A stretch of 64,000 bases of DNA. Origin: Daphnia pulex (lineage: Eukaryota > Arthropoda > Branchiopoda > Diplostraca > Daphniidae). Of this stretch, positions 27,838-37,195 are shown in pieces. Positions within the stretch are counted from its first letter, which is position 1; every line of letters starts with the position of its first letter. Location of the stretch: contig NC_060018.1 of the NCBI RefSeq assembly GCF_021134715.1, positions 10,743,501-10,807,500 on the forward strand, written 5' to 3'. The notes under the pieces were generated by a model that worked only from the letters and a program-made list of their open reading frames with translations, was not told the DNA's origin and searched no databases. Both the position numbers and the translations under genes were made by a program.

Positions 27838-28678
27838 ATGTCCAGCCTCTTTGAGCGAATTAAAAGTGCCATTCCCAGCGACGGGCTGCAAATCGCACCT
27901 TACAAAGTCATCCGCCAAGTCCAGGTATTTTGTTTTTGCAGCAATCAAATGTCCGTCTGCTGTATTTATCTGGCGAACTGATTTGAATTTGAATGATGAC
28001 GTCAATCCGTAAGGATTACGAAGAGCGGATTTATCCGCCGCAGACGTGGGTGAGAACTTCGATGCGGAACAACTCGCGGGAGGACTGCACCTATCCGATG
28101 TTCTGGAAATTATTCAATTACATTTCGGGGCAGAACGGGCGGCAATTGAAAATCCCCATGACGGCGCCAGTGTCCGTTCTAGTCCAGCCGGACGACGACC
28201 AATGCGGCGGAGCGGCTGCCGGTGACCTCCAGATCACCTTTACCATGGCCTTTTACATTCCCCCACCGTTCGACCAAGATCCTCCCGAACCCAACGAATC
28301 GAGCGTCACCATTGAATATCGGCCGGAATTACGGATTTTCGTCAGGTTTGGTCTAAATAATTTACTTTATCGATTTGCTCCATCGATTTTATTTGTTTTT
28401 CCTTTTTTTGCTTTTTATTTGTTTGAAGGACTTATGGGGGTTTCACGAACGACCGCATAGACCAGGAGGAGCGTTGCCACCTGCTCGCCTCTCTCACGAC
28501 AGAAGACAGAGAAATGGTGCAGCAGAGCCAGCCGGGGTCCGTTCACTATTGCGCTGGATACGATCCGCCTTTGAAACTCTTTTTCCGCCGTAACGAAATC
28601 TGGCTGCCCATCATTCAGCCGGGACTGACTGGCGTCAATAATCAGTCTGACGGCATCACGACCATTTTGACCCCTTAG
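27838..28678 (+). CDS. SOUL-family heme-binding protein, single domain
   Basis: Exons 27838-27924, 28014-28345 and 28429-28678 join in phase to 222 residues. SOUL/HEBP proteins are small heme- or tetrapyrrole-binding proteins (family knowledge). Markers: APYKVIRQ, DYEERIYP, a block MFWKLFNYISGQN, the PMTAPVSV core, FTMAFYIP, and at the end TYGGFTNDR, CAGYDPPLKLFFRRNEIW. The length is usual for the family and there is no signal peptide, so it should be cytosolic. A perfect TGACGTCA sits in the first intron (27997-28004). It is the tandem paralogue of the SOUL part of the gene at 29141-36212, with both introns at the same positions. Confidence 0.92.
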
Positions 28679-29140: not shown

Positions 29141-30980
29141 ATGGATCCAAACCGGAATTCTTATAAGTAAGTTCATGTTTAGAAGCTTTGTTTTGTTTTT
29201 CTGTTATATCAAAGATTTTATTACATAAGGTGCTGGGCCTTTTTGTTGTTTTTACTCGTCGTCGAGTCGGCCGTCGTTAACGGAAAAGCGGATGCATCGA
29301 ATTCCGGACTTCCGGTAGCTTTCGACACTGTGCCGCTTGGCGATTTTCACATCCGCACCTACGAGAAGGAACTTGGTTCTTTGAATCGATTCTACTTCGC
29401 CCCGTTGGCTCTGCTGGAGCACACGAGTGCCTCTAGCGGCCGTAATAACTTGACCGGCGAAAATCAGCTGGCCTTCCGCGTCGAGATGTGGACGGAAGAG
29501 CTGGTCCACGTCGTCAAAGAGCATCTGAGCAACGTGACTGGGCTGGACGTGGCCGAGAACAAAGTGAGCGTGTTGCCGTTCGAAAAAGTTTCGATGCGCT
29601 GCCGACGGTGCGGCAGCAGCGGGACGGGCCGGCCCGATAGCCATTGGCGATCCTTTTCGCACGGACCCAAACAGATGCAATTCCGGCTGGTCTGCCCCAC
29701 CTTGGAAGAGTGTCGAGATCTCGGCCAACAAATGATTACCCATCCGGAGCAGTTCTCCTCGCAGCTGACGCTCTACTTCCAATTTGATCATAAAAGTTTG
29801 ACGTCCGGGGGCTCCTTGAGACGCAAGTCCGCCTCCGTGTCCGGCGAGCACGTTTGGAACGGTCCAATTATGGCGGATTTGAATAGGAGATTTTCCAACT
29901 CTTCTTTCGCTTTGGTGACTGCCCAGGATCGCGCTAGGATCGTTTCCGAAGCTCTGGAAAATGTTCTGACGGATGTCGAGGTGTTGGAAGATTCCGACAA
30001 TCTCGGACTGGAACCCGAGGACGAAACGCGTTTGCGGAGGATTTTGGAGAATCTCATCTTTGAAAATCACATCATTCCGCTGGAGGAAGATGACGAATCT
30101 TCGTGGAATTCTCTCTACTGGGACTACGAGAACGCCGGATCGGATGTGAGGCCAGACGTCATGGCCCGGAAACTCAACAAAATTTACCAGAACGCGGATG
30201 AGAAGGAGCGCAAGTGGATGGTTCAACAAGTGATGCAGGATGAGCCTTCCGGCCTGATGGCGTCGGCGAAAAATGTCGTCAGTGATGAGACACTTCGGGC
30301 TCTGACGAACGTCTTCCAAACTTCGCCATCACGTCTTTCGAGTAGGCTGGAAGAGAGCAGAAGAACTATCCAGTGGGAGAGAAATCATTTCGCTCCCAGG
30401 CTGACGAAATTGTACCGAATCAATTTGGACAAGCTGCGCAACAGTTTCAAGCCCGTGCGGAATATTCCCATCAAATATTCGGTCGTCGACTTGAAATTGG
30501 ATCTAAACGTTCAACCGACAATGTCGCGAATTAATTTCGACAGAAAACCTCAAATTCCTAAATCCAGTAAAATATTTATTGATTTAGTAAAATTTATTAT
30601 TGGGTGCTTAATTGTGTAATGATGTCCTCTTAAATTCGATAATTTTACGACAGCAGGAAATGAGGAAATTCAAGAACAATCGCAACCAGCGCCTACAAGT
30701 GACCCAACAGGAAATGAGGCCGGCCCTGGAATATTTCAAGGTAAGTTGCGAATTTTGGCCGCTAGCTGCCGCTTTCTCCTGTTGACAAGGTTGCTATGGG
30801 GATAGTGTTATTTAAATACACCCCGACTTACATAATTTAAAACAAATCGCGATGACAACATAAAACTTTCTAGTCGTTTCCTGTCAAACGACCTGTGGTT
30901 GTAGACTTACTCTGGACGAATAATCAGTTCTTGTCATTCTTCGCTATGGCACTGTCAGGTCTGTTCCAAACAATTCGCGG
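29141..30980 (+). CDS. SOUL fusion gene, 5' part: secreted N-terminal module
   Basis: Exons 29141-29166, 29230-30566, 30657-30740 and the first 22 bases of a fourth exon (30959-30980), cut by an LTR element. All junctions are in phase, and the last runs in phase into the SOUL exon after the element. The product starts MDPNRNSYKCWAFLLFLLVV, a signal peptide or anchor, and has N-glycosylation sequons (NLT, NVT, NSS). It then carries a Cys-bearing module of about 200 residues (VSVLPFEKV, QFRLVCPTLEECRDLGQQM, FSSQLTLYFQF), like uncharacterised secreted arthropod families. Residues about 200-450 are helical and charged; a proline-rich linker (QSQPAPTSDPTGNEAGPG) leads to the SOUL domain. If the 90-base intron 30567-30656 is retained, the frame ends at 30619 with a hydrophobic tail, a possible short isoform. 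No function can be named for the N-terminal module. Confidence 0.75.
30976..30980 (+). repeat. Target-site duplication, left copy
   Basis: CGCGG directly before the 5' LTR; the same five bases follow the 3' LTR at 35156-35160. Confidence 0.93.
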
Positions 30981-31267
30981 TGTTGGGAATTTATTGCATC
31001 CCAACAGTGATCGACATTATTGCTACTGTTAATTCTGTGTAATTTGTAGGGACCTCAACAGAGGGCCCCGATTTTACCCTCTCTTCCCATTCAATCTATT
31101 GTTCCCTACCCTACTCAACCCTAAACCAACTATTGAAATACCAAAATGCTGTATTATACGGCAGTGTGAAATATAAGGACGAACTAGCAACAACAAAGGT
31201 GTCATCTCTTATCTCAATCTTGGAAGTTGAACGGTCGACACCGCCAACAAGAGTTCCATTTCCAACA
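30981..31267 (+). repeat. 5' LTR
   Basis: 287 bp, TG...CA ends, with a short inverted TGTTGGGA...TCCCAACA at its own left edge (30981-31006). It appears base-for-base equal to the 3' copy. Confidence 0.93.
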
Positions 31268-31649
31268 TGGTCCTTCGAACCGGAGTTTTCTCCAACCAGT
31301 GTTAAGTTAGTTTCGCTCTATCACACTCAAATCTTTCTCTCGTTATCTCCTTTTGCTTAATCATTGCCGCCATTTATCAAAGAAAATTGTGTTTAATTAT
31401 GGCAGGTCAGTCATTTATTAGAATCTTTTTCTCTCTCTCTGAGTTTAACTTGTTCTCAGGGGTCTAGTAAGCAAATAGATCCCTCTAAACAGTAAATTAT
31501 TTTTCTTCTCTCTCTTGAATTAAAGCTAAAATATTTCCTCAAAGTTTCTTAAAATTAAAATAGGATTCCTAAATCATTTTTGAAGGGGGATTTCTTTTTT
31601 TGTCACGTAAATTATCATCGCCTAAGTTGATTATTCTCTCTTCCCTTTC

Positions 31650-32260
31650 AACAAATTTTTTTTTTTTGGGGGGATATTGCTTTCCAATATCTAAGATTGG
31701 GCAAACTTGGGAACTTCCCTACCTCTTTAACGTGTTCACCTCGTGTGAGCCTTAGGTTAAATTCCCTCTCTATCTCTTGATACGCCTCCCGGCATTGTAA
31801 AAACGAATCTCAGCTGATTGGGTTCACTGCCCGTTCTTTAAAAATGGGATAACGCGGGAATCTCTTTCCTTTCAAGAATTTTTTTTTGGGGGGGCTTGCT
31901 TCCCTACCTCTTAGATTGGGAAAACGCGGGAACTTCTCTAACCCTTCAATGAGTTCGCCTCGTGTGAGCCCCAGGGTGAAAAGACTTAAATAAATTATCG
32001 CTCTCTTTGCTATGGCCTTAGACCATTTCCCGAAAACAAATCTCTCTCATTTTTTGAATTAATTTGCATTGTTTGTTATTCAATCATTTGGGTAAATCTC
32101 TCTCTGTCTCAGAAGGCACAACGATCTCTCTAAATACGACAGAAAAATATTCTCTTTTTTGGGGGGCTAGGCCGGTTTCCCCTTTAAACTGGAAAAAACG
32201 CGGGAAAATTCTCTACCCTTTCAACGCGTTCGCCTCGTGTGCGCCTTAGGGTGATTAAAA
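31650..32260 (+). repeat. Three diverged leader repeats of the LTR element
   Basis: Each unit has a T run, a G run, a TTGG-AAAACGCGGGAA-like phrase, then a CAA(C/T)G-GTTCGCCTCGTGTG phrase and a AGCC(T/C)(T/C)AGGG end. The last phrase recurs at about 31735, 31950 and 32222, so the period is roughly 215-275 bases. The units are clearly related but diverged, unlike the LTRs. Confidence 0.7.
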
Positions 32261-32733
32261 CTTGAATTTTTTTTCTCTCTCTCTATTTACAAAGGCCTTC
32301 CGCCATTTCGAAACAAATCTCGCGCTCTTACGCTCTTGCATTTTTTGTTTGCTTAAAGGGAAATCTTTCTCTTTTTCTGAGAAGGCACAAAGCGCCCTCT
32401 GAGCACAAAATTGGGAATTAGAAACCGCCGTCTTGCGGCAAAAACTCTTTAAATTCTCTTTCCTAAAAATTGTTATTATGCCGTTTGTGGGATTGTAAGG
32501 AGCTAGAAAATTACCCTAGCTCCAAAATCATTCAGTTTTTGCAGATATCTTCACATAAAGGAATTCAAAGAAAGTGGAAAAGACAGCAGAATTTAATTCG
32601 GCACCACGAATCTCCGAAGACCGAGCAGAACAACAAACAAAAAGGCTAATCAACTTAATCAAAACATTAATTTAAACTAATTATCTTCTTTTCGTACTCT
32701 CAGCAGCTCCTTAGGAGCCACCTCCAACTCACA

Positions 32734-34725
32734 ATGGCTCCAAATTACGCAAGAACTTTAATTAAAAAGCATATCACCCGTATCATTAACCTCGTCGAAA
32801 CGTACAAATCAACAGAAATGACGTTGGAAGCGTTTATCGAAGTCGAAAAATTAGAAAAAAAGCTAGATGGATTCTACAAAACTTATGAGATATTCTCAAA
32901 AAGGGTCCAGGCTGAAATGTACAAAGAAGGCGAAGACCAAGAAGAGATCAATGCAGACATCGACACCATGTACCAAACAATGGACGATGTTATTGTCGCC
33001 AAAATTCACATCTTAAAGAAAAAACGAAGAGAATGGTTAGACAAACTCGAAAAGGAAGCAGATGACGAAGAATGGGAGAAGGACAGAGAAAGAATGCTCC
33101 AAATTCTCCAACATCAGGCAGCAACCCAGGCAGCAAACCAGGCAGCAACCCAAGCACAACTCAATCGGGACATAATCAGTCAGGTGATCGCAGCCATCTC
33201 AACAGCCTTTTCAGTGCCCGTCGCTCCAGGAGATGTCAACTTATCACCAACAGCTTCTCAGGAGCCAGCTTCTCAAACAAATCCAGTAATAGAGTCAATT
33301 CTCAAAACCCTCTCAACATCTCAATTTGCAGCAGTATTAGTGCCAAACCCAACTCCACTAGAAGTGTCGTCGCTTACGACAACAAGCTGTAGTTTTCAAA
33401 ACACCCCTTCATACCAGTCAAAAGAAAATATCCAGACGGAAGAAAAAGAGACTGGAACGGCCAGTCTCCCTCACCCACCGAAAAAAGGAGACTCACTCTC
33501 GGATTCTCCGGATGGGCCAGACGGATATCCCGACAAAAAAAGGTTTGAAAGGAACGAAATAAAAGAAAATAATTCCTTTGTTTCAAAGTTAGAAAACTCA
33601 GCAAATCTGGAAGGAGCAGAAAAAATCCCATCATCGAACGCGAAAAGTTGCTACAGCGACCAAAACGTCAAATCAGCCCAGTCAAAAGAAGTCCCGATGG
33701 AAAAGGAGCCTGGAACAGCCAGTCTCCAACAACGACCAAAAAAAGGGCTATCAATCTCAGATATTCCGGTCAAATCCAGTGGAAACAAAGACGAAAAAAG
33801 GTTTGAAGACGAGCTGAAAGCAACTAACCTCAAATTTGCAAACTTAGATGGTGTAGATGCAGTGGAGTCCAAAAATCTCTTGAGCTCCTCTAGCAACGAA
33901 AAAACTGCTTGCACACTCATTATTCAAGAAGCTCCAGCTACTCCGGCAGAAGCTCCTCGTCCTCTCATTATTCTAGAAGCTCCAGCTACTCCGGCAGAAG
34001 CTCCTGGTACTCTCAATCTTCAAAAAGCTCCAGCCAATCCGGCAGAAGCTCCTCACTCTCTTAGTCATCAAGAAACTCCTACTTATCAAGCAGAAGTTCC
34101 TGACACATTCAATTGTCTAAAAACTAAAGATTCAATTATTAGGATTCCGCCAGCCGGCTCCAAAGAAAAGGATATTCCTACCTTTCTTTTTTTCCCCTCG
34201 GGAAGGCCAGCTGCATCGCTGGAAACACTTAACTCTTTTCCGAGTCAACTTAAACAAACCAACTTCTCTTCTTCTGGAAATTTATCATCGTCGCCAGAAA
34301 TCCAGGAAGCTTCGAAAGAAAATCCTCAAGAAGCCGCTGCATTTGTCAATTCAACAAACGTAGAAAGCAACCAAGAAATCATTCCGAAGTTCAGATCGCC
34401 GTGCAGTCAAGCAGCAATTCTTCCGGAATTGGCCAATCAACAAAACTCAATGAAACGGAAGCGCTTGGAGCCAGTAAAACCAGCTCCTAAACGCATCTCA
34501 AGGTTACCAAGTATAGAAGAACATCTCATCAACCAGTTGCTGTTCTCTTATTCGTTAACCCAGGTACCAAACAAAATCGTTTCACATCTTCTAAAAAATA
34601 TTCTTGTGTTAAAGGACATTGAAGAAGATTCCAACACACACCAATCGGTATGGGATCCTGGTGGCAAACTTCCAAAGAGTCAGCCAACTCTCAATCGGAA
34701 TCAAATGGAATGGACAATTAACTGA
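32734..34725 (+). CDS. Gag-like protein of the LTR element
   Basis: 663 codons from the ATG (context CTCACAATGG). Residues 1-140 are helical and charged, resembling the N-terminal coiled region of BEL/Pao Gag (LVETYKSTEMTLEAFIEVEK, then a long EEWEKDRERMLQIL helix). Then follow low-complexity AATQAANQAATQ, a Ser/Thr/Pro-rich middle, and four tandem copies of a unit like EAPATPAEAP at about residues 395-460. The C-terminus is basic (MKRKRLEPVKPAPKR) and may be nuclear. No CCHC zinc knuckle or protease motif was seen. The tail after residue 450 does not look like ordinary Gag. Confidence 0.75.
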   Translation: MAPNYARTLIKKHITRIINLVETYKSTEMTLEAFIEVEKLEKKLDGFYKTYEIFSKRVQAEMYKEGEDQEEINADIDTMYQTMDDVIVAKIHILKKKRREWLDKLEKEADDEEWEKDRERMLQILQHQAATQAANQAATQAQLNRDIISQVIAAISTAFSVPVAPGDVNLSPTASQEPASQTNPVIESILKTLSTSQFAAVLVPNPTPLEVSSLTTTSCSFQNTPSYQSKENIQTEEKETGTASLPHPPKKGDSLSDSPDGPDGYPDKKRFERNEIKENNSFVSKLENSANLEGAEKIPSSNAKSCYSDQNVKSAQSKEVPMEKEPGTASLQQRPKKGLSISDIPVKSSGNKDEKRFEDELKATNLKFANLDGVDAVESKNLLSSSSNEKTACTLIIQEAPATPAEAPRPLIILEAPATPAEAPGTLNLQKAPANPAEAPHSLSHQETPTYQAEVPDTFNCLKTKDSIIRIPPAGSKEKDIPTFLFFPSGRPAASLETLNSFPSQLKQTNFSSSGNLSSSPEIQEASKENPQEAAAFVNSTNVESNQEIIPKFRSPCSQAAILPELANQQNSMKRKRLEPVKPAPKRISRLPSIEEHLINQLLFSYSLTQVPNKIVSHLLKNILVLKDIEEDSNTHQSVWDPGGKLPKSQPTLNRNQMEWTIN

Positions 34726-34868
34726 ATCCGTAGCCAGTCAACGAAACAGCTCCTCGTAATCCAGGCCATCCGGCCATCCTTCTTCAACCGCATTCTCAGA
34801 TCTCTAATCCAACGGATATCAAGTCGATCAGGATGTCGAGCCAATTGAACGGGCTCTACTGGGGAGTG

Positions 34869-35155
34869 TGTTGGGAATTTATTGCATCCCAACAGTGATC
34901 GACATTATTGCTACTGTTAATTCTGTGTAATTTGTAGGGACCTCAACAGAGGGCCCCGATTTTACCCTCTCTTCCCATTCAATCTATTGTTCCCTACCCT
35001 ACTCAACCCTAAACCAACTATTGAAATACCAAAATGCTGTATTATACGGCAGTGTGAAATATAAGGACGAACTAGCAACAACAAAGGTGTCATCTCTTAT
35101 CTCAATCTTGGAAGTTGAACGGTCGACACCGCCAACAAGAGTTCCATTTCCAACA
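34869..35155 (+). repeat. 3' LTR
   Basis: 287 bp, apparently identical to the 5' copy. A TTG-initiated open frame from 35021 runs through the LTR end into the SOUL exon in the correct frame, but it has no ATG. Confidence 0.93.
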
Positions 35156-35160
35156 CGCGG
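35156..35160 (+). repeat. Target-site duplication, right copy
   Basis: CGCGG directly after the 3' LTR, matching 30976-30980. Confidence 0.93.
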
Positions 35161-36212
35161 GGCCATCACCGGCGGAGGCATAGAGACTGCTCCCTACACC
35201 GTTCTGAGAAAAGAAAAGGTATTTCCATTATCAGTTAAATATTTTAATTTATTTGTGCAATTTCATATGTGTGCGTTTACTAGGAATATGAGGAGAGGCT
35301 TTATCCAGCTCAGAAATGGGTGAAGACCCAAACAGAGAGCATCTCGAAAGATTCTGCTTCTTCTGCCATGTTCTGGAAGCTGTTCAACTACATTTCAGGC
35401 CAGAATGATAAGAAAACCAAAGTTCCCATGACTGCTCCAGTCTCTGTTTTCATTGAACCTGGATCTGGTCCCAACTGCGAAAGCACTTTCACTATGGCAT
35501 TCTATGTTCCGGCTGCTTTTCAAGATGACACACCACAACCCACAGAAAGTGATGTGACGATTGAAGAATGTCCAGAGTTCAAGGTTCTAGCAAGGTAAAC
35601 TATATCAAATTTGCCTTAGGTAATAGCTTCCTTCTGAGAGAATTCTTGTTCTGTCTTCTATTTAGAGCTTTTCAAGGCCCTTCTGATGAAACAGCTTTTG
35701 TGCAAGAGGCAGTTCTTTTCGGGGAATTGATTCAGTCAAACAAAGAAACTGGGGTTGATTTTGATACTTATTTTTCCGCGCAATATTATAATGGAGATCC
35801 CGGCTCTGTCGAGATCGAAGAAATATGGTTTAAAAAAGCGAATTCATTCCTAGTATAATTGTGTGTAATTTTTGTATACTCTCCAATTTATCAAGTGTCT
35901 ACAAAATAATCTAATGATTTTTTTTTAAATTCTAGAACTTATGGGGGCTTTTCCAACGACCGCGTCACACAACAGGAACGTCAAAACCTGTTTGATTCTC
36001 TGGCTGAAGAGGATAAACAATTAGTCAACCAAACCGGACCATATTATTACGCTGGATACGATCCCCCATTCAAACTTTTTTATCGCCGCAACGAAGTATG
36101 GATGATTCCCCAATCTGAATTGAACTTGCCTCTTGATGCAGAATCCCAACAGCACACAACTGTCGCAAAGCCCATCAGCTCTTGCGACGAGAAAAATGAA
36201 TCGGACAATTGA
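35161..36212 (+). CDS. SOUL fusion gene, 3' part: SOUL domain with two alternative last exons
   Basis: Continuation of the gene at 29141 after the LTR element. Exon pieces: 35161-35218 (ETAPYTVLRKEK), 35284-35594 (EYEERLYPAQKWVK, FWKLFNYISGQND, PMTAPVSVF, TFTMAFYVPAAF), then either 35666-35858 or 35936-36212. Both terminal exons start with A and complete the split Arg codon left by donor AG | GTAAAC. Version a ends YFSAQYYNGD, EIEEIWFKK and a stop; version b has TYGGFSNDR, YYYAGYDPPFKLFYRRNEVW like the single-domain paralogue, plus a longer acidic tail. The SOUL core is intact and well conserved, so selection on it acted until recently. In this allele the 5' part of its exon is split from it by 4.2 kb. 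Confidence 0.85.
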
Positions 36213-36365
36213 AGCAATTCCAAAAACTATTCAAAATTTAAAATTCTCTTAAAAAATTTCGTTCATTCTTTTCCGATCTTTGCAAAAATTCAATCTGGCT
36301 GGTTTTTGAGTAATGGTGTGTCCAATACTATATACGATACACAATTGTCGCTTTCATACGACAAA

Positions 36366-36374
36366 ATAAATAAA
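36366..36374 (+). terminator. Poly(A) signal of the SOUL fusion gene
   Basis: AAATAAATAAA-type sequence about 155 bases after the distal stop codon at 36212. Confidence 0.55.
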
Positions 36375-36483
36375 GGGTTTCTGAAAATTATTTTTATTAT
36401 TATTATCTTTTCGTTTAAATACATTCGAGAAATTATCGAGATGACGAGTTGCTGATTGTAATAATAAAGTAGAGGTATTTCCC

Positions 36484-36598
36484 TTCTTCCGGACGTTTTC
36501 TTCCAGTCACTTTTTTCACGTTCTTCTTCCGGTCATTTTTATTCCAGTCCCTTTATTCCATGCTCTTATTCCGGTCATTTCTTCCGGTCATTTATTTT
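36484..36598. repeat. Degenerate TTCCGGTCATTT tandem repeat
   Basis: About seven imperfect copies of a 12-20 base unit around TTCCGGTCA or TTCCAGTCC, separated by T-rich spacers. Confidence 0.75.
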
Positions 36599-36695
36599 AC
36601 TTGAAAAACTGGTCACTGCACTTCCGAACAAAATTCCCTTTCTCCCTTCCCTTCCCTGTCGCTTACTTTTTCTTATTTTTTGAAAACATTATCGT

Positions 36696-37195
36696 TTATT
36701 TCTCTTTGGCCTTGTACCTTGTAGCCTTGGCTTTCGCCGCCGCTTTGGCTTTTTCTTTCACCAGGTTTTCTCTTTCAATATATCAGTGTTTTCTTTCATT
36801 TTATCATTCAATTTTTCTTTAGTAGCATCGGTTTTTTTCTTCACCGTATCCTTGGCTTTTCCTACCCGCCTTTCGGAACCATCTTTTGCCGTTTGTTTTA
36901 CCTTGTGGGCAGCTTTTTTCAATTCTGTTTTCATTTTTTTCGCTAGTTTCTTGTCTCTTTGTTTTTAAGAAATTTGAAGCCGATCCTAAAATCCCTTTTC
37001 TGCTGCTTTTTTATTGTTGGAATCGGAGGCGTTGCATCAACGCGTGAACCTGATAGATCTATGATATCACTTGTCGCTGCCGGTCGCTGCCATGGAGACA
37101 TCTTCGTCGTTTTGATCGTCCGCTTCTGGTACGTAGACATCTTCCTGTTGATGTACCGAGTCTGTTCCTGGCGCAATATTACTGCCGTTGTGGAA
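36696..37195 (-). pseudogene. LEA-like Lys/Ala-rich protein, frameshifted
   Basis: On the minus strand, protein-like segments lie in different frames in one direction: an acidic piece (PEADDQNDEDVSMAATGSDK), a basic piece (SDIIDLSGSRVDATPPIP...), then a Lys/Ala/Thr helix (MKTELKKAAHKVKQTAKDG, DTVKKKTDATKEKLNDKMKE), then KEKAKAAAKAKATRYKAKEK and a stop at 36696. The KAKDT/ATKEKL spacing is like group 3 LEA repeats, which protect cells in desiccation or dormancy (family knowledge). At least three shifts are needed to join the pieces, so this looks like a pseudogene. Sequencing error in homopolymers is a weaker alternative, since the breaks are not all in homopolymers. Confidence 0.5.

What the first reader, a model, noticed from the sequence alone, without database searches (positions are those of the whole stretch)
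30959..35218. Young LTR retrotransposon splits a codon of a SOUL-domain gene
The element is bounded by CGCGG duplications. Deleting it and one copy of the duplication gives an exon from 30959 to 35218 that is open throughout (…TIRGAIT…), starts at a good acceptor in the phase demanded by the previous donor, and ends at a good donor in the phase demanded by the next exon. Such a fit by chance is very unlikely. The two LTRs look identical, so the insertion is recent and may be a segregating loss-of-function or expression allele in the population.
Basis: partly seen in the sequence, partly recalled or inferred. Interest (0 to 1): 0.88.

Follow-up and report, generated by a model that had tools for sequence, protein, structure and literature searches.

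The report
Jumping gene splits Daphnia gene exon
In a water flea genome a young mobile element has cut a gene in two inside a very short coding piece, and a protein predicted from other water flea data indicates that a different mobile element landed in that same short piece, so the gene looks broken in more than one independent way.

Summary
Confirmed and extended. In Daphnia pulex (window = C2:10743501-10807500 of a 133-Mb assembly) a 4.2-kb LTR element (287-bp LTRs, 0 differences; TSD CGCGG) sits between bases 2 and 3 of a Gly codon, in an 80-bp exon that joins a secreted-type N-terminal domain to a SOUL domain. Without it the gene reads 705 codons and aligns end to end with ~700-aa proteins of D. 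magna and D. sinensis, which carry the uninterrupted junction. As it stands the frame stops inside the 5' LTR after 507 aa; skipping the exon stops after 485. The element is gag-only BEL/Pao: at least 36 full-length gag copies in this genome; 14 of 15 LTR pairs read have perfect 5-bp TSDs. Two surprises. (1) The only other copy of the gene found here, in an inverted segmental duplicate, lacks the element but has a 5-bp deletion beside the same target, plus a stop codon and a 1-base deletion. (2) An older D. pulex protein model (P0001, DAPPUDRAFT_334226) runs from the end of another BEL family's LTR straight into base 49 of the same exon. If that junction is genomic, two BEL families and a deletion have hit one 80-bp exon. 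Segregation was not testable.

The parts
29141..29166 (+). exon 1, start ATG
   Evidence: donor ATAA|GTAAGT; MDPNRNSYK shared with database protein P0023
29230..30566 (+). exon 2, hydrophobic signal-like start and N-terminal domain (no Pfam match)
30654..30740 (+). exon 3, linker TGNEEIQ..GIFQ, ends in phase 1
   Evidence: same linker in P0023
30959..30980 (+). exon 4, left part (22 nt), ends with the target copy CGCGG 30976-30980
30976..30980 (.). target-site duplication, left copy
30981..31267 (+). 5' LTR, 287 bp
31030..31032 (+). stop codon that ends the host frame inside the 5' LTR (507 aa)
31268..31285 (+). primer-binding site TGGTCCTTCGAACCGGAG, complementary at 17 of 18 to a tRNA 3' end plus CCA
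32734..34725 (+). single long gag-like ORF, 663 aa
34854..34868 (+). polypurine-like stretch CTCTACTGGGGAGTG before the 3' LTR
34869..35155 (+). 3' LTR, identical to the 5' LTR
35156..35160 (.). target-site duplication, right copy
35161..35218 (+). exon 4, right part (58 nt)
35187..35187 (.). exon-4 base 49: in P0001 the sequence that follows another BEL family's LTR end begins here
35284..35594 (+). exon 5, SOUL domain
35666..35858 (+). alternative last exon 6a (AFQGPSDETAF...), counterpart in D. carinata P0029
35936..36212 (+). last exon 6b (TYGGFSNDR...), SOUL C-terminus

Best explanation
A recent retrotransposition of a gag-only (non-autonomous) BEL/Pao LTR element, by 5-bp staggered integration, disrupted exon 4 of a gene that encodes a secreted-type N-terminal domain fused to a SOUL heme-binding domain. 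Shown: anatomy, target duplication, identical LTRs, empty site in the segmental duplicate, uninterrupted junction in orthologous proteins, premature stop. Inferred: pol proteins come in trans from a related gag-pol BEL family with like LTR ends, tract and PBS; the allele makes an N-terminal-only protein of about 507 aa and no SOUL domain. The same exon was probably hit independently by a second, gag-pol BEL family in other D. pulex material (protein P0001). As the only other copy found in this genome is also broken there, the fused protein is probably lost in this assembly.
For: LTRs 287/287 identical, TSD; 14 of 15 LTR pairs read have perfect 5-bp TSDs, the other lies in a tandem array; 40 LTR matches scored of 88 candidates, 34 at 100%; 36 full-length gag copies, 25 of them at the top score, among 75 matches (67 of 126 candidates scored). 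Empty site in C2:11240001-11248000 with a single CGCGG. Joined gene 705 aa against D. magna 704 and D. sinensis 699 aa, 67%. gag 37-39% to the N-terminus of ORFs of 2,051-2,098 aa, among them ORFs that also hold Peptidase_A17. The C11 gag-pol family: LTR 289 bp, one copy with 5' and 3' LTR 289/289 identical and TSD GAGTC, a second copy with TSD ATATA, GGGGAGTG tract, PBS starting TGGTCCTTCGAA (seen in one copy). P0001 junction: 21 of 22 residues with the full LTR end joined to exon base 49, best of the 80 positions.
Against: No reads, RNA or second assembly could be examined. The second insertion rests on one predicted protein; its 5' junction and TSD are unseen. Model P0023 (second copy) ends before exon 4, and searches returned no fused D. 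pulex protein, so use of the exon-3 to exon-4 splice in D. pulex itself is inferred from orthologues.
Confidence: 0.93

Rival explanations
1. The SOUL gene is separate and starts at ATG 30945 (MALSGLFQTIRG); the upstream exons belong to another gene, so the element splits a first exon rather than exon 4 of a fusion gene.
For: The tandem SOUL gene (P0005) starts MSSLFERIKSAIPSDG at the same point, and P0022 shows MSGWFQTIRGAITGGG.
Against: D. magna, D. sinensis and D. carinata proteins of 669-704 aa run through both halves with a like linker.
Confidence: 0.1
2. The second D. pulex insertion is a mirage: P0001 is a predicted splice of a BEL element to the SOUL exon, not a genomic junction.
For: P0001 is a predicted model that skips most of gag-pol (residues 1-137 and 129-194 map about 5.5 kb apart in one ORF) and part of the LTR; TCO annotation is described as aggressive (PMC5427498, passages).
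Against: P0001 runs to the TSD-defined end of the LTR and continues at exon base 49; a splice donor would have to sit by chance at the LTR end. It is not the same element: the two gags are 38% identical.
Confidence: 0.12
3. The inverted duplicate at C2:11.24 Mb is a misplaced alternative haplotype, so the empty site is an allele and the insertion is heterozygous.
For: 99.3% and 98.6% identity on the two sides of the insertion.
Against: Inverted, 465 kb away, pieces of 94.7-99.3% identity with kilobase gaps over 43 kb; no N in any locus fetched up.
Confidence: 0.1

Closest known systems
BEL/Pao LTR retrotransposons of Daphnia pulex (Rho et al. 2010, PMC2996953)
   Same: TGT/ACA LTR ends, 5-bp TSD (that paper gives 4-6 bp for most of its elements), gag homologous to BEL gag-pol ORFs
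   Different: no pol found; [quoted passage not shown]
TR-GAG, gag-only non-autonomous LTR elements of plants
   Same: LTRs, PBS, one intact gag ORF, no pol
   Different: known to me from plants (search listing only; definition recalled); here BEL/Pao in a crustacean
C11 gag-pol BEL family (2081-aa ORF, C11:5779338 and C11:6434317)
   Same: similar LTR start, LTR length 289 vs 287 bp, GGGGAGTG tract, first 12 bases of PBS
   Different: LTR body and gag diverged (38-39% aa over the N-terminus)
SOUL/HEBP heme-binding proteins, Pfam PF04832
   Same: exons 5 and 6b match PF04832 (E 5.8e-32, 6.2e-13)
   Different: fused to a 480-aa N-terminal part

Membership tests
LTR retrotransposon | two direct LTRs with TG..CA ends and a TSD | tested here: met
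LTR retrotransposon | tRNA PBS next to the 5' LTR and purine tract before the 3' LTR | tested here: met
   PBS 17 of 18 to a tRNA 3' end plus CCA; ARAGORN without introns found no gene there, with introns it labels it His(gtg); I read it as Tyr (recalled)
BEL/Pao | gag related to gag of BEL/Pao elements | tested here: met
   37-39% to ORFs among which several hold Peptidase_A17; C-terminus of one such ORF matches DUF5641
BEL/Pao | own pol (RT, RNase H, integrase) | tested here: not met
   one 663-aa ORF without a pol domain and none in 7 of the smaller + strand ORFs; the remaining short ORFs were not scanned. So a non-autonomous BEL/Pao-derived element, not an autonomous member
TR-GAG-like gag-only element | intact gag kept in divergent families without pol | tested here: inconclusive
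   dN/dS 0.66-0.72 against 4 diverged relatives, bootstrap upper bound below 1 in 3 of 4; whether those relatives lack pol was not tested
SOUL domain | PF04832 match | tested here: met
   (exons 5 and 6b; exon 6a had no match)
segregating allele | filled and empty alleles in one population | not testable with these tools
   no reads or other assemblies

The most novel reading that the evidence does not exclude
Parallel fission of one gene: in D. pulex the SOUL half has lost its constraint while the N-terminal half is kept, and exon 4 is a repeated breakpoint (two BEL families 31 bp apart, plus a 5-bp deletion next to the first target that might be the scar of a failed BEL integration). The N-terminal-only protein would be the surviving product in D. 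pulex.
Probability: 0.2. Interest if true: 0.75.

Novelty: new member of a known kind. Interest (0 to 1): 0.52.

Why it matters
It gives a clean exon disruption by a gag-only element that looks recently active, with filled copy, empty copy and orthologous proteins all in hand. If the second hit is confirmed, one short exon is a natural test of whether BEL elements have hot spots or whether selection in D. pulex tolerates or favours cutting the SOUL half from its partner.

Tried and rejected
Exon skipping as rescue: out of frame, stop at 485 aa. LTR-started chimera: the frame through the 3' LTR into the exon is open (34931-35323), but its translation has no Met before the exon's donor; not pursued. 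An autonomous partner with the same LTR: the 20 LTR pairs among the 40 scored of 88 candidates lie 3.7-3.9 kb apart, so none was seen. Exact PBS as partner marker: 50 exact sites in the genome, and the 7 read outside this family have other LTR ends, so it is not specific. Substitution pattern between the two copies (N-terminal exons 3 nonsynonymous codons and 6 synonymous changes; SOUL exons 4, 5 and 6b 6 and 2, the stop counted as nonsynonymous; Fisher p 0.15, counted) leans to relaxed SOUL constraint but is not significant; of three adjacent changes at 29284-29286 one counts as synonymous and two as one nonsynonymous codon. Papers with SOUL, heme-binding and Daphnia: none; the two gene names in print: none; independent insertions and Daphnia: one unrelated hit.

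Full report
What is there. The window lies at C2:10743501-10807500 of a 133,188,837-base assembly in 13 contigs. C2 is 13,352,584 bases long, the same length as the contig that carries two database proteins named Daphnia pulex, P0005 and P0023, so the species is D. pulex; that it is the KAP4 reference (named as GCF_021134715.1 in PMC11754708, passages) is inference. The element has 287-bp LTRs at 30981-31267 and 34869-35155 without a difference, TSD CGCGG, a PBS directly after the 5' LTR and a GGGGAGTG tract before the 3' LTR.

Gene. With the element and one CGCGG left out, exons 29141-29166, 29230-30566, 30654-30740, 30959-30980 plus 35161-35218, 35284-35594 and 35936-36212 read as 705 codons and a final stop; the introns are GT-AG. 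Exon 4 by itself is open in two of three frames, so its openness alone proves little; the fit with orthologues does. The protein aligns over nearly its whole length, at 67%, with D. sinensis P0027 (699 aa) and D. magna P0028 (704 aa), and at 64% with D. carinata P0029 (669 aa), which ends in the alternative last exon. All three hold GLF(Q/K)TIRGAITGGGI uninterrupted. The tandem SOUL gene upstream has a first exon of matching layout (MSSLFERIKSAIPSDG..., P0005).

Effect. Read as it stands, the frame runs GLFQTIRG into the 5' LTR and stops at 31030-31032 after 507 aa; skipping exon 4 stops after 485. The SOUL domain is lost either way unless transcription restarts downstream; no RNA could be examined.

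Second copy. An inverted duplicate matches the window from 28888 to 64000 in pieces of 94.7-99.3% identity (pieces over 300 bp listed) between C2:11245595 and 11202353. At exon 4 it has no element and one CGCGG, but lacks 5 bases (aligned to 30971-30975) directly left of the target; exon 5 begins with a stop codon and carries a 1-base deletion. Its N-terminal exons carry no stop or indel against the window. P0023 (LOC124205379 isoform X1, 504 aa) matches this copy by its NEADPG and ends in the intron. A genome search with the N-terminal domain gave these two copies at about 100%; the other 82 of 84 matches are at most 38% identical. A SOUL search gave 12 matches, none a further intact copy of this gene.

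A second insertion in the same exon. P0001 (DAPPUDRAFT_334226, 412 aa; the prefix is that of the TCO assembly, recalled) consists of a BEL gag start (residues 1-137, 93% to C11:6434317), the C-terminal end of the same 2081-aa ORF (129-194, 80%) and an LTR tail, then TAPYTVLRKEK and the rest of the SOUL part, 99% identical to the window over 206 residues. The LTR end of that family was fixed as follows: one copy has 5' and 3' LTRs 289/289 identical with TSD GAGTC; in a second the 5' LTR matches over the 288 bases fetched and TSD ATATA flanks both ends; a third 3' LTR ends in the same TTTTCTACA. Joining the last 30 LTR bases to each of the 80 exon positions, the full end at exon base 49 gives 21 of 22 residues of P0001 with two LTR ends, which are identical to each other, and 20 of 22 with the third; one base less on the LTR and one more on the exon is indistinguishable. 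Thus a different BEL family probably sits 31 bp from the first target. If hits fall evenly over the 2,892 bp of gene body, a second hit in this exon has a chance of about 2.8% (80/2892, my arithmetic), or about 6% if only the SOUL half tolerates hits. It came up through a search with the SOUL part, so I call it striking, not proven non-random.

The element family. Of 88 LTR candidates 40 were scored: 34 at 100% and 6 at 99%. Of 15 pairs read with flanks, 14 have perfect 5-bp TSDs, all different, and one lies in a tandem array. gag: 75 matches (67 of 126 candidates scored), 36 of them full length at 99-100% on 12 contigs; further gag-bearing relatives at 56-75%. Against four of these dN/dS is 0.66-0.72, with the bootstrap upper bound below 1 in 3 of 4. 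No pol domain was found; a weak DUF4485 match in gag (E 0.022) and three matches below their cut-offs in an out-of-frame ORF (best IL6Ra-bind, E 0.00035) were disregarded. With 4.59e-9 substitutions per site per generation for D. pulex (PMC7820357, passage) zero differences in one pair bound the age at about 1.1 million generations (95%); 17 pairs without difference bound the mean age at about 67,000, ignoring gene conversion.

PBS. It matches 17 of 18 bases of the complement of a tRNA 3' end plus CCA (L076). ARAGORN found no gene there without introns and labels it His(gtg) with introns; I read it as tRNA-Tyr with an intron (recalled). The gag-pol family shares the first 12 bases (one copy read); its place is not among the matches of the 18-base PBS at up to one mismatch.

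Context in print. Rho et al. [quoted passage not shown] The PA42 paper reports more young LTR elements in TCO and an aggressive TCO annotation (PMC5427498, passages), which fits P0001 as an artificial gene model over a real junction.

Verdict. Ordinary in kind; unusual in that two BEL families, one of them seen only through a protein model, and a deletion meet in one 80-bp exon.

Noticed in passing
window 35666-35858 and 35936-36212: Two alternative last exons of the SOUL domain; the first has counterparts in D. carinata P0029 and in P0007, so the choice is conserved.
   Followed up: partly
C2:10986001-11010000 and C2:11180001-11204000 (L051, L049, L052; L048, L047, L046): 24 kb are 100% identical in direct order with an offset of exactly 194,000 bases; recent duplication or assembly artefact.
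   Followed up: partly
window 28888-64000 against C2:11245595-11202353: Large inverted segmental duplication, 94.7-99.3% by piece, with a sharp left end between two SOUL genes.
   Followed up: partly
C11:335506-340596: Tandem array of the gag-only element sharing an LTR.
   Followed up: partly
C10:9835055-9881065: 29 copies of a tRNA 3' end, mostly about 1.42 kb apart; the one read looks like a tRNA gene with an intron.
   Followed up: partly
window 29230-30566: The N-terminal domain has no Pfam match but 84 matches in this genome, many on C10: a large unnamed Daphnia family.
   Followed up: no
L042 5229-6516 (near C2:9235258): Third partial copy of the last exon and 3' region, 90.6% identical to window 35875-37142.
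   Followed up: no
window 27838-28678: Tandem SOUL gene, P0005, with a D. magna counterpart P0003 whose number (OUZ56_009211) adjoins that of the fusion gene (OUZ56_009212).
   Followed up: no
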